Positions 49,633-60,073 of a DNA stretch of 64,000 nucleotides are shown piece after piece; positions within the stretch are counted from its first letter, which is position 1; each line of letters begins with the position of its first letter. The notes under the pieces are model-generated. The model was not told where the DNA came from. It was given only the letters and a program-made list of their open reading frames with translations, and did no database searches. Source of the stretch: a candidate division KSB1 bacterium (lineage in GTDB: Bacteria; Zhuqueibacterota; Zhuqueibacteria; JANLFK01; Oleimicrobiaceae); NCBI GenBank assembly GCA_024655945.1, contig JANLFK010000001.1, positions 434,001 through 498,000 on the forward strand, written 5' to 3'. Both the position numbers and the translations under genes were made by a program.

Positions 49633-50949
49633 TCAGTCGTAGTACTCAAGACCCAGGTGGGTGATGAGCTCCTCGCCGCGTAGGTAACGCAAGGTATTCT
49701 TCAACTTCATCAGCTGAATGAACAGGTCATGCTCCGGATAGAGCTCCCGGGCACACATCGGGCTCTTGAAGTAGAATGAGAGCCACTCCTGAATGCCGTG
49801 CATGCCCGCCCGCTGCGCGAGGTCCATGAAAAGCACCAAGTCGAGCACAATGGGCGCCGCCAGAATGCTGTCGCGGCAGAGAAAGTCCACCTTGATCTGC
49901 ATGCGGTAGCCAAGCCAGCCAAAGATGTCCAAGTTGTCCCACCCCTCTTTGTTGTCTCGCCGCGGCGGGTAGTAGTTGATGCGCACCTTATGGTAAAAGT
50001 TGCCGTACAGTTCCGGATAGAGCTCCGGCTGGAGGATGTACTCCAGCACCGAGAGCTTGCTTTCCTCCTTCGTTTTGAAGGAATCCGGATCATCCAGCAC
50101 CTCGCCATCGCGGTTGCCGAGGATGTTGGTGGAAAACCATCCATCCAAGCCCAGCAGACGAGCCTTCAGCCCTGGTGCGATGATGGTCTTCATCAGGGTC
50201 TGGCCGGTCTTGAAGTCCTTGCCGGCGATAGGCACCCGCTTCTCGCGCGCCAGCTGCACCAGGGCCGGAATGTCCACCGTCAGGTTCGGGGCACCATTGG
50301 CAAAGGGCACGCCGCTCATGAGGGAGGCGTAGGCATAAATCATACTGGGCGCAATGGCCGGGTCATTCTCCTTCAGCCCCTTCTCGAAGCTGGCGATGTC
50401 CTGATGGACAGCCGAGGGGCGGATGAAGACTTCCGTGCTGGCGCACCAGACCATGACCATGCGATCGAGGGCGTGCTCGCTCCGGAAACGCTCGATGTCC
50501 TCCATGAGCATCTTGGCCAGATCGTACTTCGTCTTGGCCTTCTTGACGTTGGGGCCATCGAGTCGCCGCACATAGTCCCTGCTAAAGACGGCAGGCCACG
50601 GCCGGATGGCAGCCAGTTCGTCTTTGACCTTTTCCAGATCGCTGACCTCCAAAACCCCCGCTTTGAGCGCCGACTCGTAGCAGTTGTCCGGGAAGATATC
50701 CCACCCCCCAAAGACCAGATCCCCGAGTTCGGCAAGAGGCACAAAGTCCTTGATCTTCGGGATGCGCTTCTCGGTGCGCTTGCCCAGGCGGATAGTGCCC
50801 ATCTGCGTCAGGGAACCGAACGGCTTGCTGTGGCCGTTGCGCACCAGTTGCACACCGGCAATGAAAGTGGTACCCACGGCGCCCAGCCCTGGCAAGAGCA
50901 CCCCCAACTTCCTCTGTGGCTGCTTGATCTCTACTGGTTGCTTGCTCAA
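49633..50949 (-). CDS. ino1: Inositol-3-phosphate synthase
   Basis: A 438-residue NAD-dependent enzyme converting glucose-6-phosphate to inositol-3-phosphate. The N-terminal NAD-binding motif is GVLLPGLGAVGTTFIAGV. Conserved blocks include NLTVDIPALVQLAREKRVP, IAGKDFKTGQTLMKTI with the catalytic Lys, and GWFSTNILGNRDGEVLDDP. With the CDP-alcohol phosphotransferase at 51445-52077 it suggests inositol phospholipid synthesis, as in Bacteroides. It lies 31 bases after panD in the same direction. Confidence 0.92.
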   Translation of the reverse strand: MSKQPVEIKQPQRKLGVLLPGLGAVGTTFIAGVQLVRNGHSKPFGSLTQMGTIRLGKRTEKRIPKIKDFVPLAELGDLVFGGWDIFPDNCYESALKAGVLEVSDLEKVKDELAAIRPWPAVFSRDYVRRLDGPNVKKAKTKYDLAKMLMEDIERFRSEHALDRMVMVWCASTEVFIRPSAVHQDIASFEKGLKENDPAIAPSMIYAYASLMSGVPFANGAPNLTVDIPALVQLAREKRVPIAGKDFKTGQTLMKTIIAPGLKARLLGLDGWFSTNILGNRDGEVLDDPDSFKTKEESKLSVLEYILQPELYPELYGNFYHKVRINYYPPRRDNKEGWDNLDIFGWLGYRMQIKVDFLCRDSILAAPIVLDLVLFMDLAQRAGMHGIQEWLSFYFKSPMCARELYPEHDLFIQLMKLKNTLRYLRGEELITHLGLEYYD

Positions 50950-50980: not shown

Positions 50981-51352
50981 CTATTTTCTCGAAGCCTTTG
51001 CTGGCTCCACAACACGGTTGCGCTCGTCGACGTGCACAATCTTCGTCCTAAAGGTGCCTACCTCCTCCTCCGGGACCCAGGCAAAAGACAACAGGATCAC
51101 CAGGTCGCCAGGATGGGTGTTTCTGGCAAGTGCACCGTTGGCGCACACGACGCCGGAGCCAGGTTCGCCCTCGATTACGTATGTCTCGGCTCGGGTACCG
51201 TTGTTGAGGTTGAGCACGTGGACCTTCTCGTTGGGGAGCAGGTCGGCTGCCTCCATCAGCAGGCGGTCGATGGTCAAGCTCCCCTCGTAGTTCAGGTTGG
51301 CGTCCGTAATGCGGGCGCGGTGAACCTTTGATTTACACATCTCGCGAAACAT
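50981..51352 (-). CDS. panD: Aspartate 1-decarboxylase proenzyme
   Basis: A 123-residue pyruvoyl enzyme making beta-alanine for pantothenate. With the start at 51352 the self-cleavage site falls exactly at Gly24-Ser25 (NYEGSLTID) as in characterised PanD, and CKSKVHRARITDANL at the front supports it. The start has GGAGGGAG about ten bases upstream. No other pan gene is nearby; it lies between inositol-lipid genes. Confidence 0.93.
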   Translation of the reverse strand: MFREMCKSKVHRARITDANLNYEGSLTIDRLLMEAADLLPNEKVHVLNLNNGTRAETYVIEGEPGSGVVCANGALARNTHPGDLVILLSFAWVPEEEVGTFRTKIVHVDERNRVVEPAKASRK

Positions 51353-51444
51353 CTGCGGTCGTTCTCCCTCCTCTGTTCTTTCCCATACGCAGGAGCGCTG
51401 GCCAGCCACTTGCCTTGGCCTCTATTCGCTTCCTGCGTTTTGCC

Positions 51445-52077
51445 TTAGGTGGCGTCCTGCGACCTCGCCCTCTTCTCGCTGGCCCACACATGATAAAGCC
51501 TCTGCCCGGCAGTAAAATTCGACAGAAGGGCGATCACAAAAATTGCCGCGATGAGGGCATACTCATGCGCAAGGCTGCCTGCGCCCACCAACACCAGGCG
51601 CTCAGGTCGTTGCATGAGCCCCACTTTGCACTCAAAGCCCAGGCCCTCGGCGCGCGCGCGCACATAGCTGACCATGAGCGAGCCGGCGAGGGCCACGCAG
51701 ATAGCCACCGAGACCAGCAGCTGCTGGTGAGCCACGAAGTAGAAGGCCATTCCGAAGAAGGCGATTACCTCTGCGTAGCGGTCCAGGGTCGAATCGTACA
51801 GAGCGCCAAACCTCGTCACCCGGTTGGTGGCCCTTGCAACTTTGCCGTCCAGAGTGTCCAGCAAGCCGCAGATCAGCACCAGCGCTCCGCCCCATCGGAG
51901 GTAGCCTTTCGCGTAGCACACGCCCGAGGCCCCGCCCACCAGCAGGCTGAACGTCGTCAACCAGTTCGGATTCAACTTGAGCTTCACCAACCACCCTACC
52001 AAGGGGTTCAGCCCGTTGAGGAACCCCTCTTTCAGCCTGGGCGGCAAGATAGAGAACTTCATACGCGGAATAGTCAT
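51445..52077 (-). CDS. CDP-alcohol phosphatidyltransferase (probable phosphatidylinositol-phosphate synthase)
   Basis: A 210-residue integral membrane enzyme with about six helices. The signature D-x2-D-G-x2-A-R-x8-G-x3-D-x3-D is complete: GLLDTLDGKVARA, then FGALYDSTLDRYAE. The LMQRPERLVLVGAG segment is shared with bacterial inositol-phosphate transferases. In the same run as ino1, it is likely to join CDP-diacylglycerol with inositol phosphate; this is inference from context. Confidence 0.85.
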   Translation of the reverse strand: MTIPRMKFSILPPRLKEGFLNGLNPLVGWLVKLKLNPNWLTTFSLLVGGASGVCYAKGYLRWGGALVLICGLLDTLDGKVARATNRVTRFGALYDSTLDRYAEVIAFFGMAFYFVAHQQLLVSVAICVALAGSLMVSYVRARAEGLGFECKVGLMQRPERLVLVGAGSLAHEYALIAAIFVIALLSNFTAGQRLYHVWASEKRARSQDAT

Positions 52078-52086
52078 TTCACCTCT

Positions 52087-52908
52087 TCACCGGGTGCTGT
52101 CTGCCTGTCGCTTGGACCGGCCTTTGCCGTCGACAACCAGCACCACCTCGCCTTTCACCGTCTGCGTTTCGAATCTGCTCACCAGCTCACTGAGCCGCGC
52201 CCGGATGATTTCCTCAAACTTCTTCGTCAGCTCTCGTGCCACCACCGCTTGCCGGTCTCCGAGCACGGCCAAGAGGTCGCGCAAGGTTCGCTGCAAGCGC
52301 CGCGGCGACTCGTACAAGACGAGCGTGCGCTCCTCATCCCGCAGGCTCTCCAGGCGTGTCTTGCGCCCCTTTTTTGTCGGCAGAAAGCCCTCGTATGCGA
52401 AGCGCTCCGTGGCCAACCCGGAAGCGGCTAAGGCCGTCATCAAAGCCGTGGGGCCGGGGACTGCTTGCACAGGGATGCCGCTGCTGATGGCAGCCCGCAC
52501 CAAGTAGGAGCCAGGGTCAGAGATGCCGGGGGTGCCGGCATCCGAGACCAAGGCCACGGCTTGCCCTTGTTTGAGACGCTCAATCAGCTGGGGTGTCCTC
52601 TGCACCCTATTGTACTGGTGATAGCTTATCAGGGGCTTGCGGACCCCATAGTGCCGCAACAGGATGCCGGTGTGGCGCGTATCCTCAGCAGCGATAAGGT
52701 CCACCTGCGCCAGCACATCCAGCGCCCGCAGGGTGATATCCCGCAGGTTGCCAATCGGCGTGCTCACTAAGTAGAGGACGCCAGGAGTCACCGCCGTCTC
52801 GCGCTGCGGAGCACCTCCGTCATCCTCCTCCGGCACCTGGCCACCGTACATCGGCCGACCCGCCCAGGAGTCGGAGCCACGTCTTGCGTCACGGCTGGGC
52901 CTTGCCAT
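52087..52908 (-). CDS. rsmI: 16S rRNA (cytidine(1402)-2'-O)-methyltransferase
   Basis: A 273-residue SAM-dependent enzyme with the RsmI hallmarks LYLVSTPIGNLRDITLRALD, ALVSDAGTPGISDPGSYLVR, and YEGFLPTKKG. It methylates C1402 in the decoding centre. The frame start at 52908 would overlap the end of the upstream methyltransferase by 20 bases; the first ~40 residues are outside the family and a start near 52851 is also possible. C-terminal tail is basic. It is downstream of the restriction-modification pair. Confidence 0.92.
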   Translation of the reverse strand: MARPSRDARRGSDSWAGRPMYGGQVPEEDDGGAPQRETAVTPGVLYLVSTPIGNLRDITLRALDVLAQVDLIAAEDTRHTGILLRHYGVRKPLISYHQYNRVQRTPQLIERLKQGQAVALVSDAGTPGISDPGSYLVRAAISSGIPVQAVPGPTALMTALAASGLATERFAYEGFLPTKKGRKTRLESLRDEERTLVLYESPRRLQRTLRDLLAVLGDRQAVVARELTKKFEEIIRARLSELVSRFETQTVKGEVVLVVDGKGRSKRQADSTR

Positions 52909-55090
52909 ACGTGGCCCTGGCTTCCCTCACGAAAAGGCTCAACTGCTCTGCCTTCCTCGCGCAGGCTCTCGGCAGCGCTGTCTCCTGAACGGCGTTCCGC
53001 ACCACGTGCATCGCCGAGTCCTTCATTTCCCCGAGGGCCTCTGCCAACGTGAACGGTTCATTACGATGCCTCACATTGGGATAGGCCTTGGCGTAGTAGT
53101 CCACGGTTTTCGCCATGATAGTTGCGAATATGTCTGCGTCACTCATGCTCATTCTGGAGCCCACCGTAGCCTTCACGCACTGAATGGCGTCGCCGAGGAT
53201 ATGCTCCCTAATGTTCGACCAAGCAGACTCTTGCCAGTTGCTCGGTCGCTTTCGGCACACCAGGACACAGTCATATCGAATGTTGCCTTTGCTTGAATGG
53301 AAACCGCTCTTTCCCTCAGATCGCACCATGGGGCTGGCTACCACGTAGAAACCCGTATCCAGGAGGATCCTGCCGAGGCTCTCCCACGCCCACACCTTAT
53401 TGTGGTGAAAGGTAAAAACCAAGAGGCCCTCGGCCTTGAGTACCCTGTGGCATTCGGAAAAAACCCTGGTCAAGCCTGCGCAGAACGCTTCGATCGACAT
53501 TCCCTTCTTGTCGTTCTGCACAATCTCCTCGCCTCTACTGGACAACTCCGGCTCGAACCAGGGATAGTCCTTCCTCAGACCGAGTCTTAGCCACACGTAG
53601 AAGAAATCTGCAAGCTCGGAGTACTGAATGTTGTCAAAATAGGGCGGATCAGTTATCACCGCGTCAACGGACTGGTCCGGGAGGAATGACCGGTCCTCCG
53701 AGGAGGCGCAACGCAGCAGCGCAGCGCGCTCGGTCTCGCGCAGCTGGGTATAACAACTATCAACCAGCCTGCCCTCGATCCTCTCGCCAGCAGAAGTCTG
53801 GCGCTGTTCAGTGGCCCTCACGCGACCGACTGGCAAGGGGCTTGCGCAGAACTGCTTTGCTCGCCGGACCTTGTGAAAACACCGAACAAAGGTGCCGCGC
53901 CCAAACTGAGTACCCCAAACGTTGTTCTCTGTGAGTCTCTCGATGCGATGATAGGCGTGCAATCCAAAGAAGAGGGAGATCTTGTGCCACTGCACCTCGT
54001 ACGTGCAGAACATGTTGTTGGCATCCAGACAGTCAGAGAAGGCGAGAAGCATCGCCTCGCGTACGTTCGCATCGGGGATCTGTAATATTGCCTCGAGCAG
54101 ACGTGACAAACACAGAAGCTGCCGTTCGTTAAACATGTCGCGGAAACGCATATAGCCGTGATTGACAGGGCGTGGGTCACTTCTGCCTTCTGCTGGGATC
54201 ACTTGGTCAGGGAGAAGAAGTTCTTCGCGCACTCTCTCGTATTCGGCTTGAGCCCGCCTCCACAAAGCCAAGTCTTCGTCGTCTACTTTCTTGAAGAACC
54301 TACCGCAACTCGGACAATACCCCTCAAGCGCGTGAAGCTGACTTGGAATGGCACTGCCCCGGTGAGCGACAATCTCGAGCAAAGAATCCTCGGCGTGGCA
54401 CCTCGGACAACGTACATTGCCTCTGCTGGCTCCTCCTGCGTGCGGGTCGAATACTCTGCCACAGTCACTGCAAGTTACGGTGCCACTCGTCGCCTCCGTT
54501 TCCAGCACCTGCAGGCAACTCGGACACACCACTACCATTGAATGGTTTCTTCTGGATAGCTGGTAGTCCGGGAAGAGGTGCACCACCTCTCCACAGGTGC
54601 GACACTGGATGACTTTCACCCAGAAGAAGTACATCACCTCGGCCTCATGTCCGCGAGGGCACGTCGTTCGGTAGTACTGCTTGATCCAGCTCCCGACGGT
54701 GCTTTCCAACTGCTTGAAGGCGCGGTCCAGTTCGCCGATGTCGACTGGTTCAATCTCTTTCTTGGTGACAAACCACGCCACAGGGTTGATATCCATCCCG
54801 ATCACTTTGCAACTCAAGCGAAGAGCTTCCACCACCGTGGTACCTCCGCCCATGAATGGGTCAAGAACCACAGGCCCATGCAGGTCGGCCCCAGTGATGA
54901 ACTTCTGGCATGGGTGCTGTTCGGTCTCTGCTTCCTCGCCGAAGGTGGCCAGAATGATCATGCGAAATACACTTCCCAACCGTCGAGCCCACCACTTGTG
55001 CATCTTGTACACCGGCTGCTTGGCGCTGCCTTCGGCCAAAGCCATGGGGTTGAGGAACCTCGACGGGAATGTGCGCTCTAGGGCTCGCAT
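52889..55090 (-). CDS. DNA methyltransferase with zinc-ribbon insert (modification subunit, N4/N6 type)
   Basis: A 733-residue DNA methyltransferase. It opens with YKMHKWWARRLGSVFRM and motif I VLDPFMGGGTTVVEAL (~residue 75) followed by GMDINPVAW. Residues ~140-290 carry at least seven CxxC pairs (for example CRTCGEV, CPSCLQV, CSDCGRV, CPRCHAE, CPSCGRF), a multi-zinc-ribbon insert. Motif IV is TDPPYFDNIQYSELADFFYV (~residue 480), followed by VLKAEGLLVFTFHHNK. This is the DUF1156-like layout of amino-methyltransferases. It starts at the last base of the endonuclease stop (TAATG coupling). It protects the genome against its partner and may have been acquired with it; GC looks lower than in neighbours by eye. 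Confidence 0.82.
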   Translation of the reverse strand: MRALERTFPSRFLNPMALAEGSAKQPVYKMHKWWARRLGSVFRMIILATFGEEAETEQHPCQKFITGADLHGPVVLDPFMGGGTTVVEALRLSCKVIGMDINPVAWFVTKKEIEPVDIGELDRAFKQLESTVGSWIKQYYRTTCPRGHEAEVMYFFWVKVIQCRTCGEVVHLFPDYQLSRRNHSMVVVCPSCLQVLETEATSGTVTCSDCGRVFDPHAGGASRGNVRCPRCHAEDSLLEIVAHRGSAIPSQLHALEGYCPSCGRFFKKVDDEDLALWRRAQAEYERVREELLLPDQVIPAEGRSDPRPVNHGYMRFRDMFNERQLLCLSRLLEAILQIPDANVREAMLLAFSDCLDANNMFCTYEVQWHKISLFFGLHAYHRIERLTENNVWGTQFGRGTFVRCFHKVRRAKQFCASPLPVGRVRATEQRQTSAGERIEGRLVDSCYTQLRETERAALLRCASSEDRSFLPDQSVDAVITDPPYFDNIQYSELADFFYVWLRLGLRKDYPWFEPELSSRGEEIVQNDKKGMSIEAFCAGLTRVFSECHRVLKAEGLLVFTFHHNKVWAWESLGRILLDTGFYVVASPMVRSEGKSGFHSSKGNIRYDCVLVCRKRPSNWQESAWSNIREHILGDAIQCVKATVGSRMSMSDADIFATIMAKTVDYYAKAYPNVRHRNEPFTLAEALGEMKDSAMHVVRNAVQETALPRACARKAEQLSLFVREARATYGKAQP

Positions 55091-55821
55091 TACCTCGCGT
55101 AAGAATTGCGTCTCAGGAGCTCATTCCACATTCCGGCGCCGCCTTTCCCGTATGTCCGCTCAGATTCTTCAGTCAACTCGTCAATCTCGTTCCGTAGGAC
55201 CTCTGCAAGAGATTGCCCAGACGTATCCCGGAACGACTCCGCCACGGAACGTGCGATTTCATAGACCGTGTCGATGCAATCTGGTTCACCAGAGATGAAC
55301 TCCCAGAACTCGCGCCCAGAGAGATACTCGACACCGCCTTCCTGTTCGACGTATTTCCTCACAATGCTGGACACTCGGGCGCGGTTGCCATGGCACATCC
55401 CGTACAAAGCCACCGAGCCTCGATTGCGACGCTCCGCCGAGCGGAGGAGTTGAGCGATACGGACACTAAGGTCCTTGGGAATGGTATTGGGCCCGCTCTT
55501 CACTTGGATGTAGTAATGCCTCCCCTGCTTGGTCTTGAGAATGTCAGCCCCTTCCACTCCAGTCCCTTCTGAGAACACCTTGGCTGCATCTTGCAGAGCA
55601 ATGCCAAAACCCGTGACGGTGCCACGCTCCAACCGTTGATTCACCAGCCACTCTACGATAGCCCGGGGCCGATGCAACCCCAATTTAGCTGAGAGCATGC
55701 GGACAAGAAACGGGTTTATGTCCAAGTCGTCGAGTTTCAAACGACGAATTCGGTCCGCCCGTTTCTCCAAGAAAGAGCGAAATATGCCCTCGATCTCGGC
55801 TCTCTCTTTTTCGCCGATCAC
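55090..55821 (-). CDS. PmeII-like type II restriction endonuclease
   Basis: A 243-residue nuclease. The layout matches the PmeII-type family: LDDLDINPFLVRMLSAKLGL (~30-50), then GTGVEGADILKTK with the catalytic acidic residues and HYYIQVKSGPNTI with the QVK end of the PD-(D/E)xK core (~105-115), then ERRNRGSVALYGMCHGNRAR and GREFWEFISGEPDC. All core residues are present. The start is GTG 55821 without a clear Shine-Dalgarno. It lies 30 bases after the saccharopine dehydrogenase stop and is coupled to the methyltransferase by a 1-base overlap. Recognition sequence cannot be read. Confidence 0.85.
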   Translation of the reverse strand: MIGEKERAEIEGIFRSFLEKRADRIRRLKLDDLDINPFLVRMLSAKLGLHRPRAIVEWLVNQRLERGTVTGFGIALQDAAKVFSEGTGVEGADILKTKQGRHYYIQVKSGPNTIPKDLSVRIAQLLRSAERRNRGSVALYGMCHGNRARVSSIVRKYVEQEGGVEYLSGREFWEFISGEPDCIDTVYEIARSVAESFRDTSGQSLAEVLRNEIDELTEESERTYGKGGAGMWNELLRRNSYAR

Positions 55822-55851
55822 AGGCCGAACCCCGACCAGGTGCGCATCGCG

Positions 55852-57186
55852 CTAATTCGCCCTCAACTGCTCCACCTTCTCCTTGCACCTAATCCCCAGT
55901 CCCTCTAACTCCTTGAGGATCGGCACATAGATCTCCGGCGTGACGGGGGTGATGACACCCTTCCTGGTAATCTTCCCCTCCAGGATGTAGCGGGCACCAA
56001 TAGCCGCAGGCAAGCCCACGGTGCGCGACATGGAAGAATCGCCGCCTGGGATGCCAAAATCTATCAGGCTGGAGGTGATTTTCTCACGACGCCCCTCTGC
56101 CGGAAAATCAGCGAGGAATTCGTGCACCAGCACAATCATGTCGCGCTCGTTGGGCTTGTACGCCATCTTTTGCAGCATGCGCGCAGCCAGGATGTCCAAA
56201 TTGGAGCCCTGCTCCACGGGCAAAGGCTCTTCGCTGAACAGGCCCAGCCACTCCAGACGGTCCAGAATGTCTGAGTCCACGGGAAGTTTGAGGAAGGCCG
56301 CCACCTTTGCCCGCAAGTCTTGGCCTGGAGCCGCTCCCACCAGCTGTCTGATCAGCTCGGCGAAGGTCATCCCTTTCACCGAGCGCACCTTGTCATCCAG
56401 CATGCCCAGCTCGACGATCTTCTTCATCGTCTTGCACCATCCCAAGTTCCGGAAGGTGCCGCGGAACATGGTCTTCGTCTCCTGGATGCCGTAGGTGTCG
56501 ATGTACGGCAGCGAGTTGCGATTGGGGTACACCTCCATCTCGCCGAGCGTATCGACCTTCTTAGTCCAGTAGTGGTCAAAAAGGTCCTCGCCTGGAATTT
56601 CCACAATGTTGCCGTCCTTGAGGTATTTGGCGGCATTACGCCCCGCCATGACCACGCCGCGGGGACTCCAGGAGAACTTGTAGCCAAATGGGTTGTCGTT
56701 CGCCTCTGGCGCCGGCAGCCCACCACAGCACGATTCAAAGCTGACGATTTGCCCGCCCCGTTTGTGCACATCGTCGATGATGCGCATCGCCGACATGTGG
56801 TCGATGCCCGGATCAAGCCCCAGCTCGTTGAGGATGGTGATGCCCGCCGCCTTCGCCTCGCCGTCGAGTGCCGCCATGGCGTCGCTCACGTACGAGGTGG
56901 TCACCATGTGCTTCTTGTGCTTGATGCAGTGCTTCGCCACCACCACGTGATAGGTGTAGGGGACCATGCTGATAGCCAAGTCACAACCGGCAATCAGCGA
57001 ATCCAGCTGGGCCTCGTCGTCCACGAGCAACGCCTTGGCCACGCCGCGCGGATGCCCTTCGATGAGCGCTTCCGCCTTGGCCACCGTTCGGCTGGCAACG
57101 ATAACCTTCAGGTTCGGTTGCTCCAGAAGGTAGCGCACCAGTGGACGAGCAACCAAACCGGCGCCGAGAATCAAGACGTTTTGCAT
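55852..57186 (-). CDS. Saccharopine dehydrogenase (glutamate-forming)
   Basis: A 444-residue NAD(P)-dependent enzyme of the LYS9/AASS C-terminal family. The Rossmann motif ILGAGLVARPLVRYLL is at the N-terminus; family blocks are LNELGLDPGIDHMSAMRIID, ESCCGGLPAPEANDNPFGYK and SWSPRGVVMAGRNAA. It splits saccharopine into glutamate and aminoadipate semialdehyde. The start overlaps the stop of the lysine-ketoglutarate reductase gene by 16 bases, preserving the order found in the eukaryotic fusion protein. Confidence 0.93.
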   Translation of the reverse strand: MQNVLILGAGLVARPLVRYLLEQPNLKVIVASRTVAKAEALIEGHPRGVAKALLVDDEAQLDSLIAGCDLAISMVPYTYHVVVAKHCIKHKKHMVTTSYVSDAMAALDGEAKAAGITILNELGLDPGIDHMSAMRIIDDVHKRGGQIVSFESCCGGLPAPEANDNPFGYKFSWSPRGVVMAGRNAAKYLKDGNIVEIPGEDLFDHYWTKKVDTLGEMEVYPNRNSLPYIDTYGIQETKTMFRGTFRNLGWCKTMKKIVELGMLDDKVRSVKGMTFAELIRQLVGAAPGQDLRAKVAAFLKLPVDSDILDRLEWLGLFSEEPLPVEQGSNLDILAARMLQKMAYKPNERDMIVLVHEFLADFPAEGRREKITSSLIDFGIPGGDSSMSRTVGLPAAIGARYILEGKITRKGVITPVTPEIYVPILKELEGLGIRCKEKVEQLRAN

Positions 57187-58529
57187 AGCCAGTTCCTCCT
57201 GTTGTCCCTCTCTGCGTTGGCCACGTACTGCTGCAAATACCGATAGTCCGGGGTCAGCTCGCCACGGTGCACGATCACCGCGCGCTTGATCTCCGGCGGC
57301 AATTCGAGCGCCTGGAAATCGCCACCATAGTCGGCGGTGACGATGGCCGGCACATAGTCCTTGAGCACGCTGCTGAAATAGACCGATGAGGCGCGCGGCA
57401 GCTCGCAGGGGAGATTGTCCACCGCCAATACCACAACCCCTCGCCCTTCATGCCCAGGCGTGGCAGTAGCCGTCAGCGGGTCATAGACAAAGATCGGCTC
57501 ATCCGGACTCGTAGCGCGCACGGTACATTCAATCGAGCCTTCGACGTCGCAGGAGATGTCGCCGATCACCCGCAAGCGCGGCTTCGATCCTTGTGCAAAG
57601 AGAAGGCGCAGGTGCTCTTTGGTCACGAGTCGTGGACAGCGCGCGTCCCAGTAGATGCCGTTGACCAGCACCGAGAGGTGGGGCACATAGTCGGCGAAAC
57701 GCCCCTCGTACCGCTGCGGATGCTGGTAGTAGTCTTGCAGGTCGAAGCGACCGTTGGGCTCCACCGGTCTGACCATCTCCTCCTCATGGAAGACGACCTT
57801 GTAGAGGATGTTGCGCGCGCAATCTCCACCAGCACTCAACTCCGATAGCTGGGCAGGCGCAACCTTGCGGTGGGGGAGCAAGTCGAAAATTTCCTGCGCC
57901 CCCTGAGAGACATGCCCATATCCCGCAAACCCGCAGACAAAGGGCACCAAGCCCTCGGGGAGGCCATCGCTGGCAATCCGCTGGCCCACGCGCTCCACCG
58001 CCTCTTTTGCCTCCTGCAGCGTCGCATAGCGGTGTGCAGGCTGAAGCGCGGCGAACGGCGTCTCCAGCCCCTCGTTGCGCAGGCGCAGCCCCAGCGCCCA
58101 CAACGTGTCCAGCATCCCCGCCAGACCGGCATGCCTGCCGAAAAAGATCAGCCGCCTGCCGCGCTCGTCGACAATCCTCTCATAGTCTATCAGAGTGCAA
58201 CCCAGTTCCAAGAGCCTCTTTAGCATGGGCATATTGTGCTTCTGGCCCTTGATGACGTGAGCAAAAAAAACGTACGTACCGCCCGGCCGGAAGAAATGCA
58301 GCGGAATTTCCTTCACGGCAAAGACCACGGGGCAGTCGCTCACATCATCCTTGACGGGAATGCCCAGCTCGCGGTACTGCTCGTCGGTGAACACACGGAT
58401 GGGCGAGCTTTCGACGACGCACTGCAGCCCGTGCTCCGCACACAGCGCCTGCACGTGGTGCGGCGTGAGCGGCGCGCGCCGTTCCCAGCGATTCTTGTCT
58501 TCACGCCTTATGGCAAATAGCTTGTTCAC
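57171..58529 (-). CDS. Lysine-2-oxoglutarate reductase (saccharopine-forming)
   Basis: A 452-residue protein of the AlaDH/PNT-type LKR family. The N-terminus IRREDKNRWERRAPLTPHHV matches the LKR half of eukaryotic LKR/SDH nearly word for word; later blocks are FFGRHAGLAGMLDTLWALG and the GFAGYGHVSQGAQEIFDLL Rossmann-like segment. It condenses lysine with 2-oxoglutarate to saccharopine. It lies 14 bases after the aldehyde dehydrogenase and overlaps the saccharopine dehydrogenase start. Confidence 0.9.
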   Translation of the reverse strand: MNKLFAIRREDKNRWERRAPLTPHHVQALCAEHGLQCVVESSPIRVFTDEQYRELGIPVKDDVSDCPVVFAVKEIPLHFFRPGGTYVFFAHVIKGQKHNMPMLKRLLELGCTLIDYERIVDERGRRLIFFGRHAGLAGMLDTLWALGLRLRNEGLETPFAALQPAHRYATLQEAKEAVERVGQRIASDGLPEGLVPFVCGFAGYGHVSQGAQEIFDLLPHRKVAPAQLSELSAGGDCARNILYKVVFHEEEMVRPVEPNGRFDLQDYYQHPQRYEGRFADYVPHLSVLVNGIYWDARCPRLVTKEHLRLLFAQGSKPRLRVIGDISCDVEGSIECTVRATSPDEPIFVYDPLTATATPGHEGRGVVVLAVDNLPCELPRASSVYFSSVLKDYVPAIVTADYGGDFQALELPPEIKRAVIVHRGELTPDYRYLQQYVANAERDNRRNWLCKTS

Positions 58530-58543
58530 AGGCTCTCCGGTGC

Positions 58544-60073
58544 TCAGTCACCAAACTTGATGCCCTGGGCCAAGGGCAGCTCGGTGGACCAGTTGATGGT
58601 GTTGGTCTGGCGCCGCATGTAGGCCTTCCAGGCATCGGAGCCTGCCTCGCGACCGCCGCCTGTGGACTTTTCGCCGCCAAAGGCGCCACCGATCTCTGCG
58701 CCGCTGGTGCCGATGTTAATGTTGGCGATGCCACAGTCGCTGCCCCGCGCAGAAAGGAAGGTCTCTGCCGACAGCAAGTTGGTGGTGAACATCGCCGAGC
58801 TCAACCCTTGCTCCACGCTGTTGTGGATTTCGATGGCCTCATCCAGAGTGGCGAAAGGCATCACGTAGAGAATTGGGGCAAAAGTCTCTTCGCCGACAAT
58901 GGGCATGTCCGGGCGTGCTTTCACGATGGTCGGTTCCACATAGCATCCTGACTTGAACTGCGGGCCGGTCAGCTCCCGCCCGCCATAGACAATCTCCCCG
59001 CCCTGCTGCTTGATAATCTCAATCGCACGCAGGAAGACCTCCACCTCAGAACGAGCAACCATCGGTCCCATGAGAACGCCCTTCTCCAAGGGGTTGCCGA
59101 TGCGCACCTGTTTGTAGGCATTGACGAGCCTTTCAAGAAGAGTATCAAAAATGGTCTCTTGGACAATAAGCCGCCTGGTGGTCGTGCAGCGCTGTCCTGC
59201 GGTGCCCACGGCCCCAAACAGCACTGCGCGCACGACGAGGTCCATGTTGGCATCCTCCATGACGATGATGCCGTTGTTGCCGCCCAATTCCAGGATGGTG
59301 CGCCCCAAGCGCTGGCCCACCACCGCGCCAATGCGTCGGCCCATCTCGCAGCTCCCGGTGGCGCTGATGAGCGGGAGGCGCGGGTCGTTGATCATCTTCT
59401 CCCCTACCACTCGCCCGCTGCCCACGGCCAAGTTGAGGATCCCCTCGGGCAGGCCGTTGGCCTTCGGCACATCGGCCAGGATTTTGTGCACGGCGATGGC
59501 GCACAGGGGCGTCAGGGACGACGGCTTCCAAATCATCGTGTCGCCACAGACCAAGGCGATCATAGCGTTCCAGGACCAGACGGCCACCGGAAAGTTGAAC
59601 GCGGTGATGATCCCCACAATGCCAAGGGGGTGCCACTGCTCGTACATGCGGTGCATCGGGCGTTCGGACTGCATGGTCAGCCCGTAGAGCTGCCGCGAGA
59701 GACCCACGGCAAAGTCGGCCATGTCGATCATCTCCTGCACCTCGCCCTCGCCCTCGGGCAGGATCTTGCCCATTTCCAGCGTGACCAGCTTGCCCAGCGG
59801 TTCCTTGTATTCGCGCAGCTTCAGGCCCATCTGGCGCACGATCTCGCCCCGCTTGGGGGCAGGCACCATCCGCCACCACTTGAAAGCTTCTTGGGCTTTG
59901 GCCACGATGGCCTCGTACTCCTGTTCGTCCACCTGGCGCACGGTGGCAATCACCTCGCCATCGATGGGGGAGATGGACTGCAGCACACCACCTTTGCCTT
60001 CCAACCACTGGGTGCCGGTACACCCACCAGAGTTTTCCTTCTCAATGCCAAGGGTCTTTAGGAAGTCGTACAT
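58544..60073 (-). CDS. Aminoadipate-semialdehyde dehydrogenase (ALDH7 family)
   Basis: A 509-residue aldehyde dehydrogenase. It has the ALDH7 features FNFPVAVWSWNAMIALVCGD, ATGSCEMGRRIGA and catalytic Glu and Cys blocks ILELGGNNGIIVMEDANMDL and FGAVGTAGQRCTTTRRLIV. In this operon it oxidises aminoadipate semialdehyde to aminoadipate, the third step of lysine degradation. Start ATG 60073 has GGAGG eight bases upstream; the open frame six codons longer is not needed. First gene of the lysine operon. Confidence 0.93.
   Translation of the reverse strand: MYDFLKTLGIEKENSGGCTGTQWLEGKGGVLQSISPIDGEVIATVRQVDEQEYEAIVAKAQEAFKWWRMVPAPKRGEIVRQMGLKLREYKEPLGKLVTLEMGKILPEGEGEVQEMIDMADFAVGLSRQLYGLTMQSERPMHRMYEQWHPLGIVGIITAFNFPVAVWSWNAMIALVCGDTMIWKPSSLTPLCAIAVHKILADVPKANGLPEGILNLAVGSGRVVGEKMINDPRLPLISATGSCEMGRRIGAVVGQRLGRTILELGGNNGIIVMEDANMDLVVRAVLFGAVGTAGQRCTTTRRLIVQETIFDTLLERLVNAYKQVRIGNPLEKGVLMGPMVARSEVEVFLRAIEIIKQQGGEIVYGGRELTGPQFKSGCYVEPTIVKARPDMPIVGEETFAPILYVMPFATLDEAIEIHNSVEQGLSSAMFTTNLLSAETFLSARGSDCGIANINIGTSGAEIGGAFGGEKSTGGGREAGSDAWKAYMRRQTNTINWSTELPLAQGIKFGD

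What the first reader, a model, noticed from the sequence alone, without database searches (positions are those of the whole stretch)
52889..55821. PmeII-like restriction-modification pair between metabolic genes
Endonuclease and methyltransferase overlap by TAATG and are packed 30 bases after the saccharopine dehydrogenase and into the start of rsmI. GC seems lower than nearby by eye. This is a likely horizontal insertion that joined a housekeeping transcript.
Basis: partly seen in the sequence, partly recalled or inferred. Interest (0 to 1): 0.5.

Follow-up and report, generated by a model that had tools for sequence, protein, structure and literature searches.

The report
Imported restriction-modification pair inside housekeeping operon
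A bacterium seems to have gained a two-gene DNA-cutting and DNA-marking defence cassette, dropped cleanly between two unrelated housekeeping genes; a close relative has the empty site, and similar cassettes, with an unusual kind of marking enzyme, occur in distant bacteria and in one archaeal genome bin.

Summary
On the minus strand, R (55090-55821) and M (52889-55090) overlap at TAATG, R starts 30 bases after a saccharopine-dehydrogenase-like gene, and rsmI follows. R has the lowest and M the second-lowest GC of 49 ORFs. Same-genus G002 has 38 bp between the dehydrogenase stop and aligned rsmI, no R, and only weak partial M matches elsewhere: an empty site. The nearest cassettes found lie in bins titled as other phyla and one archaeon (R 52-67% identical); 9 of 12 R loci share the R-then-M order.

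Corrections: R is EcoO109I family (Pfam over cut-off; fold Z 17.2). M is not a C5 enzyme but a 733-aa amino-methyltransferase with predicted zinc ribbons, distantly related to DUF1156/HmaB enzymes of BREX-related defence. The rsmI overlap is probably an over-long ORF.

A second insertion of a cousin cassette was found: in L067 it splits nuoH from nuoJ, which lie together in 16 of 19 related loci examined. No carrier, target duplication or recognition site was established. Verdict: a real, horizontally moving Type II R-M cassette; new variant of a known kind.

The parts
55090..55821 (-). R: Type II restriction endonuclease, EcoO109I family (PF14511), 243 aa, GTG start; probable catalytic signature D93 ... 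Q106-x-K108
   Evidence: Pfam E 5.2e-16, 59.5 bits against cut-off 22.5; model pLDDT 89.1; EcoO109I 1wte Z 17.2 over 237 residues; D93, Q106, K108 invariant in 11 sequences
52889..55090 (-). M: 733-aa amino-methyltransferase (N6-adenine more likely than N4-cytosine), motif I DPFMGGGTT at residues 77-85, zinc-ribbon insert, motif IV TDPPY at 480-484
   Evidence: PF01555 E 4.9e-16; PADLOC MTase_II 3e-29, DUF1156_MTase 2.6e-28, HmaB 4e-26, PglXI 4.9e-26; motifs conserved in an alignment of 10 sequences
54305..54661 (-). Predicted zinc-ribbon segment of M (residues 144-262): C144..H148, C163xxC166, C189xxC192, C207xxC210, C228xxC231, C259xxC262; possibly part of the target-recognition region
   Evidence: all these residues invariant in the 10-sequence alignment A2, checked against the window; weak, below-cut-off zinc-ribbon Pfam hits; role inferred
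55088..55092 (-). stop/start overlap TAATG joining R and M (translational coupling inferred)
   Evidence: sequence; 8 of 9 relatives have 5-9 bases between R stop and M start, L072 appears to overlap by ATGA
55852..57186 (-). flanking gene upstream: saccharopine-dehydrogenase-like protein, 444 aa
   Evidence: PF16653 E 6.5e-86, PF03435; 90% identical orthologue in G002
52087..52908 (-). flanking gene downstream: rsmI (16S rRNA C1402 2'-O-methyltransferase); ORF as listed; true start probably near 52791
   Evidence: TIGR00096 E 1e-79; similarity begins at residue 34 or later in 9 of 12 relatives

Best explanation
R and M are a complete Type II restriction-modification cassette of about 3 kb that was acquired horizontally and inserted cleanly between a saccharopine-dehydrogenase-like gene and rsmI. 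M methylates one short DNA site throughout the genome and R, a PD-(D/E)XK enzyme of EcoO109I type, cuts the same site when unmethylated, so unmarked phage or plasmid DNA is destroyed. The two genes have no controller gene (the gaps leave no room for one) and most likely ride on the transcript of the upstream dehydrogenase gene, with M translated in step with R through the TAATG overlap. Shown: gene content, order, families, empty site in G002, foreign affinity, composition. Inferred: enzymatic activity, shared specificity, cotranscription and coupling, direction (gain rather than loss in G002).
For: EcoO109I family and fold; amino-methyltransferase M with intact motifs. Order R then M in 9 of 12 R relatives found in genome contigs and in a further locus, L196 (R 67%, M 62% identical). 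R and M identities correlate over 10 loci (window plus nine; r 0.85, permutation p 0.0003), so they travel together. Empty site in same-genus G002: 38 bp between dehydrogenase stop and aligned rsmI against 3,042 bp in the window (worked out; alignment break). Among 82 genomes of the phylum (own included) no other R match exceeds 32% identity. L066 (archaeal title) and L069 (Aerophobetes title) share R at 86% and the comparable part of M at 89%, which fits transfer between very distant hosts. Lowest GC in the window. A cousin cassette in L067 interrupts nuoH-nuoJ. No terminator-like site in the junctions.
Against: Only one genome gives a readable empty site at the window's position, so loss in G002 is not strictly excluded. 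No motif test pointed to a site: GGWCC is the most depleted of 32 five-base palindromes relative to the two sisters pooled (own O/E 0.70; G002 0.82), but G001, without the pair, is at 0.72, and RGGNCCY shows no depletion. All 12 loci come from metagenome bins, several on contigs of 3.2-4.5 kb, so some taxon labels may be binning errors. The AlphaFold model of M is poor (pLDDT 64) and its fold search gave nothing at E<=0.001 (best CcrM, 1.4e-3). The nuclease family also occurs with other methyltransferase types in 3 of the 12 loci.
Confidence: 0.85

Rival explanations
1. The pair is ancestral to the genus and was deleted from G002 (and from G001).
For: Only three genomes of the genus were met in the searches (own, G001, G002), and the site is readable in one sister.
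Against: Nearest relatives found carry titles of other phyla; none in the phylum above 32% R identity; GC lowest in window; two sisters lack R, and lack any close M.
Confidence: 0.1
2. R and M are not a cognate restriction-modification pair: M is a stand-alone regulatory methyltransferase and R a decayed or unrelated nuclease.
For: EcoO109I-family R proteins also occur beside other methyltransferase types (L074 after a C5 enzyme; L076 and L077 with small methyltransferase-like ORFs), so partner identity is not fixed; no site avoidance could be shown.
Against: R-M order and co-divergence in 10 loci; R intact and its probable catalytic residues invariant.
Confidence: 0.05
3. A remnant of a BREX-related (DUF499/DUF1156/helicase) defence system that lost its other genes.
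For: M resembles DUF1156/HmaB/PglXI methyltransferases; relatives of 1004-1032 aa exist in the same phylum, and the two of these loci whose neighbours were scanned (L167, L168) have HmaC-like ATPase and BrxH/HmaA-like helicase neighbours.
Against: M of about 730-740 aa with the same R recurs in loci where the flanking proteins that were scanned and identified match no such ATPase or helicase; window flanks are metabolic. Many flanks are short, so this is only a partial look.
Confidence: 0.03

Closest known systems
EcoO109I restriction-modification system (RGGNCCY) and the related enzyme AvaII (GGWCC)
   Same: R is over the Pfam EcoO109I cut-off and aligns with its fold along nearly the whole length. 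AvaII/EcoO109I kinship and sites: passages of PMC7337904.
   Different: Only about 17-18% identity; partner methyltransferase is a large amino-methyltransferase, not a C5 enzyme (that M.EcoO109I is a C5 enzyme is recalled). No PF00145 match in any of the 3 genus genomes searched.
DUF1156 / HmaB / Type-1 BREX-related methyltransferases
   Same: 31-41% identity over most of M to relatives of 1004-1032 aa; the DUF1156 model is matched at E<=0.01 by 9 of the 10 aligned M proteins, the window's being the exception (15.6 bits, below cut-off); large insert between motif I and DPPY. Architecture described in PMC12839542, section 29 read whole, passages elsewhere.
   Different: About 270-300 residues shorter; stands with an EcoO109I-type nuclease instead of ATPase and helicase.
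Restriction-modification systems inserted in operons or moving by illegitimate recombination
   Same: Compact R-M genes between codirectional host genes; movement by reciprocal recombination at 1-3 bp identity seen in the laboratory in 2 of 28 products (passages of PMC3031569).
   Different: No long target duplication at the borders here and no mobility gene among the six flanking genes scanned. Furuta et al. 2010 (PMC2853133), which I recall as describing insertion into operon-like clusters, is not held and was not read.

Membership tests
EcoO109I family endonuclease (PF14511) | sequence over the family's curated cut-off | tested here: met
   59.5 bits against 22.5
EcoO109I family endonuclease (PF14511) | EcoO109I fold | tested here: met
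   Z 17.2, rmsd 4.4, 237 residues against 1wte; first entry that is not EcoO109I Z 6.7
EcoO109I family endonuclease (PF14511) | recognition of RGGNCCY or a GGNCC core | tested here: inconclusive
   avoidance statistics do not separate the genome with the pair from G001 without it
Type II restriction-modification system | separate endonuclease and methyltransferase genes side by side, conserved as a pair | tested here: met
   9 of the 12 loci, plus the window and L196
Type II restriction-modification system | both enzymes act on the same site; R blocked by M | not testable with these tools
   needs methylome and cleavage assay
Type-1 BREX-related / Hma system | DUF499 (HmaC) ATPase and Swi2/Snf2 helicase neighbours | tested here: not met
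   the six flanking genes scanned are saccharopine-dehydrogenase-like, alanine-dehydrogenase-like, rsmI, CDP-alcohol phosphatidyltransferase, aspartate decarboxylase and inositol phosphate synthase
DUF1156 methyltransferase family (PF06634; NF042963) | score over curated cut-off | tested here: not met
   PF06634 15.6 against 24; NF042963 120.7 against 1000
PmeII-type R-M system | m5C modification of the recognition site | tested here: not met
   M has amino-methyltransferase motifs, no C5 methyltransferase match in the genome; m5C status of PmeII from one passage of PMC8112702; the sequence of PmeII itself was not compared

The most novel reading that the evidence does not exclude
This R-M cassette is a minimal mobile unit in its own right: without a transposase of its own it repeatedly inserts, in the right orientation and without breaking either neighbour, at junctions between cotranscribed housekeeping genes (dehydrogenase-rsmI here; nuoH-nuoJ in L067; next to hypA in L068; between a tRNA-synthetase gene and a UDP-sugar dehydrogenase gene in L073), borrowing the host operon's promoter and becoming hard to lose. 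Its methyltransferase is a stand-alone offshoot of BREX-related enzymes that was recruited to an EcoO109I-type nuclease, and the cassette crosses between Bacteria and Archaea.
Probability: 0.25. Interest if true: 0.6.

Novelty: new variant of a known kind. Interest (0 to 1): 0.4.

Why it matters
It gives readable examples (empty and filled sites) of how a two-gene restriction system can enter a genome without visible mobility genes and persist, probably by joining existing transcripts. It also links two defence lineages that are usually described apart: EcoO109I/AvaII-type nucleases and the DUF1156-type methyltransferases of BREX-related systems. The pair offers a testable specificity with a zinc-ribbon methyltransferase.

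Tried and rejected
Carrier: plasmid and phage records hold no R relative at E 1e-5 (tblastn), and none of the six M peptide patterns was found in viral contigs. Target duplication: the direct-repeat search over 52760-55900 (20 largest of 23 families shown) gave no repeat at the two outer borders. The best border-related pair (16 of 18 bases, 52938-52955 in the end of M and 55862-55879 in the end of the dehydrogenase) does not fit a duplication, because the M copy encodes a segment native to M in its relatives. Recognition site by avoidance: 2,086 palindromic motifs with enough expected copies were screened in 464 kb of own genome (window included) against 392 kb of G002, then 32 motifs in 864 kb own against 588 kb from G001 and G002. 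CTAG, GATC and GGWCC are depleted, but also in sisters, and other methyltransferase genes exist in the genome, so no claim is made. One search counted both strands and inflates its z values; averages strands. AlphaFold of M was too poor for a fold claim. Dehydrogenase C-termini of relatives were read on the wrong strand for minus-strand loci (L002, L004, L007, L009-L011); only the other seven rows were used, to see that the repeat-bearing end of the window's protein is not shared. Literature: searches for EcoO109I, DUF1156 with methyltransferase, R-M with long target duplication, PmeII, R-M in operons and EcoO109I with zinc, N6-adenine, methyltransferase, horizontal showed, in the listings seen (at most 20 rows each), no title or abstract start describing this R-M combination. 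Four papers were opened: passages of PMC7337904, PMC8112702 and PMC3031569; passages and section 29 of PMC12839542.
Full report
What is there. On the minus strand of the window the order is alanine-dehydrogenase-like gene (57171-58529), saccharopine-dehydrogenase-like gene (55852-57186), R (55090-55821), M (52889-55090), rsmI (ORF 52087-52908), CDP-alcohol phosphatidyltransferase (51445-52077), aspartate decarboxylase (50981-51409), myo-inositol-1-phosphate synthase (49633-50949). R begins 30 bases after the dehydrogenase stop; R and M share TAATG. The 500-base windows inside the pair have GC 0.546-0.576. Against 49 greedily chosen ORFs, R is the lowest and M the second lowest in GC; both have unusual codon use, although some likely spurious ORFs score worse.

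R. Pfam places R in the EcoO109I family, 59.5 bits against a cut-off of 22.5. phmmer and a profile of 11 sequences find only EcoO109I among solved structures at E<=1 (E 0.00086 and 2.7e-7). The AlphaFold model (pLDDT 89.1) aligns to EcoO109I over 237 residues at Z 17.2; the first other entry is at 6.7. D93 and Q106-x-K108 are invariant in 11 sequences; the lysine aligns with that of an SLK in EcoO109I. R is an unbroken frame. In the nine relatives R ends in ...NS and a stop; M starts 5-9 bases later in eight, and in L072 appears to overlap by ATGA. In the window R runs three residues beyond that NS, up to the TAATG overlap.

M. M carries DPFMGGGTT (motif I) at residues 77-85 and TDPPY (motif IV) at 480-484, with a long insert between them in which C144, H148 and five CxxC pairs (163/166, 189/192, 207/210, 228/231, 259/262) are invariant in 10 sequences. 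I read these as three zinc ribbons. Pfam N6_N4_Mtase scores 59.8 bits over cut-off 26.7. PADLOC hits include MTase_II (3e-29), DUF1156_MTase (2.6e-28), HmaB (4e-26) and PglXI (4.9e-26), but curated DUF1156 models are not reached (15.6 against 24; 120.7 against 1000). Relatives of 1004-1032 aa in the same phylum align to M at 31-41% over most of its length. In the two of those three loci whose neighbours were scanned, L167 and L168, there are HmaC-like ATPases and BrxH/HmaA-like helicases. PMC12839542 (section 29 read) describes DUF1156 N6-methyltransferases as part of Type-1 BREX-related systems. So M looks like a shortened, stand-alone cousin. Adenine-N6 is favoured from the DPPY motif by established knowledge; N4-cytosine is not excluded. 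The model of M is poor and adds nothing firm.

Horizontal origin. One scan of genome contigs with R gave 12 loci. Nine have R followed by a homologous M on the same strand (L066 to L073 and L075; M of L066 is cut by the contig end). L074 has a C5 methyltransferase upstream of its R. L076 and L077 have small methyltransferase-like ORFs overlapping the start of the R ORF. Record titles of the 12 name Methanosarcinales, Anaerolineae (two), Ardenticatenia, Aerophobetes, Chloroflexi (two), Armatimonadetes, Bacillota, Actinobacteria and two unnamed bacteria, all metagenome bins. R of the window is 52-67% identical to the nine. In its own phylum 11 of 82 genomes (own included) have any R match at E<=0.001, and none but its own exceeds 32% identity. 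L066 (archaeal title) and L069 (Aerophobetes title) share 86% of R and 89% of the comparable part of M; R and M identities correlate over 10 loci, Mantel r 0.85, p 0.0003. In a sample of 400 genomes from the phylum of L067's genome, 2 carry a close R at E<=1e-30, one being L067's own; the other (L196) has R 67% and M 62% identical to the window's. The cassette is rare and patchy there.

Empty sites. Sister G002 carries the dehydrogenase (90% identical) and rsmI on one contig; after the dehydrogenase stop the aligned rsmI begins 38 bp later, against 3,042 bp in the window (worked out; alignment breaks). G002 and G001 have no R match. For M, G001 has none, and G002 has two partial matches of 27-30% in a 1027-aa frame on another contig. 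In G001 the contig starts inside rsmI and the dehydrogenase was not found, so that site is unreadable. Loss in G002 instead of gain is possible but less likely given the foreign affinity. A second case: in L067 the 164 bases before R encode the C-terminus of a membrane protein ending 10 bases before R, and nuoJ starts 69 bases after M. Of 40 related genomes searched, 27 have a nuoJ match; 19 of these, the best, were given as loci. In 16 of the 19 (two others are cut by contig ends, one gave no hit) that C-terminus lies directly before nuoJ, reading into it or ending at most 108 bases away. The upstream gene in L180, the one identified, is nuoH (PF00146). Thus a cousin cassette split nuoH from nuoJ.

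Contexts. Tight codirectional embedding on at least one side is seen in the window, L067, L068 (hypA starts 3 bases after M) and L073 (next gene overlaps M by 4 bases; synthetase gene 118 bases upstream). Looser codirectional neighbours, 116-260 bases away, are seen in L066, L070 and L071; L075 has a convergent gene downstream and L196 a divergent gene upstream. L069 and L072 have too little flank to say. So operon embedding is frequent but not universal, and no random-gene control was run. Cassette GC is below flank GC in 7 of 9 loci; the two exceptions are the two with under 1 kb of flank.

Expression. Promoter-like sites in 52500-58600 are at chance level (2 against 1.9), and the single terminator-like site, below the chance number of 5.5, lies inside M on the coding strand. 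Cotranscription with the dehydrogenase gene is therefore plausible and unproven. The ORF of rsmI reaches back into M, but similarity begins at residue 34 or later in 9 of 12 relatives, so I take the overlap as an over-long ORF.

Specificity. AvaII cuts GGWCC and EcoO109I RGGNCCY (PMC7337904, passages). In 864 kb of own genome RGGNCCY is not depleted (O/E 0.99 and 1.04 in two samples). GGWCC is at 0.70 against 0.82 in G002 and 0.72 in G001. G001 lacks the pair, so this is inconclusive.

Verdict. A Type II R-M cassette arriving by horizontal transfer is a known kind. The pairing of an EcoO109I-type nuclease with a zinc-ribbon, DUF1156-like methyltransferase, its occurrence in distant taxa and its clean insertion at operon junctions make it a new variant.

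Noticed in passing
L067:1-165, L068:1-169, L069:1-203, L070:1-277, L072:1-371: In 5 of the 12 loci the contig ends within 400 bases upstream of R. Assembly breaks at the junction would fit a mixed population with and without the cassette, or a repeat; G001 also breaks at rsmI.
   Followed up: partly
52938-52955 and 55862-55879: 16 of 18 bases shared between the end of M and the end of the upstream dehydrogenase gene, one inside and one just outside the insertion; may be chance or a trace of short-homology recombination.
   Followed up: partly
G000:C1:344618-345578, G000:C2:395339-396229, G000:C3:41988-42680: Further N6/N4-type methyltransferase genes in the same genome, so the pair is probably not its only DNA methylation system.
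   Followed up: no
sampled stretches of G000, G001, G002: CTAG is strongly under-represented (O/E 0.13-0.16 in G000 and G001, 0.33 in G002), GATC mildly (0.75-0.86).
   Followed up: no
L167:3076-13882 and L168:3810-16129: Loci in the same phylum with HmaC-like ATPase, DUF1156/HmaB-like methyltransferase and BrxH/HmaA-like helicase, and in L167 a short PglZ-like match: possible BREX-related systems.
   Followed up: partly
L074:29-1948: EcoO109I-family R directly after a C5 methyltransferase gene: the same nuclease family with a different methyltransferase class.
   Followed up: partly
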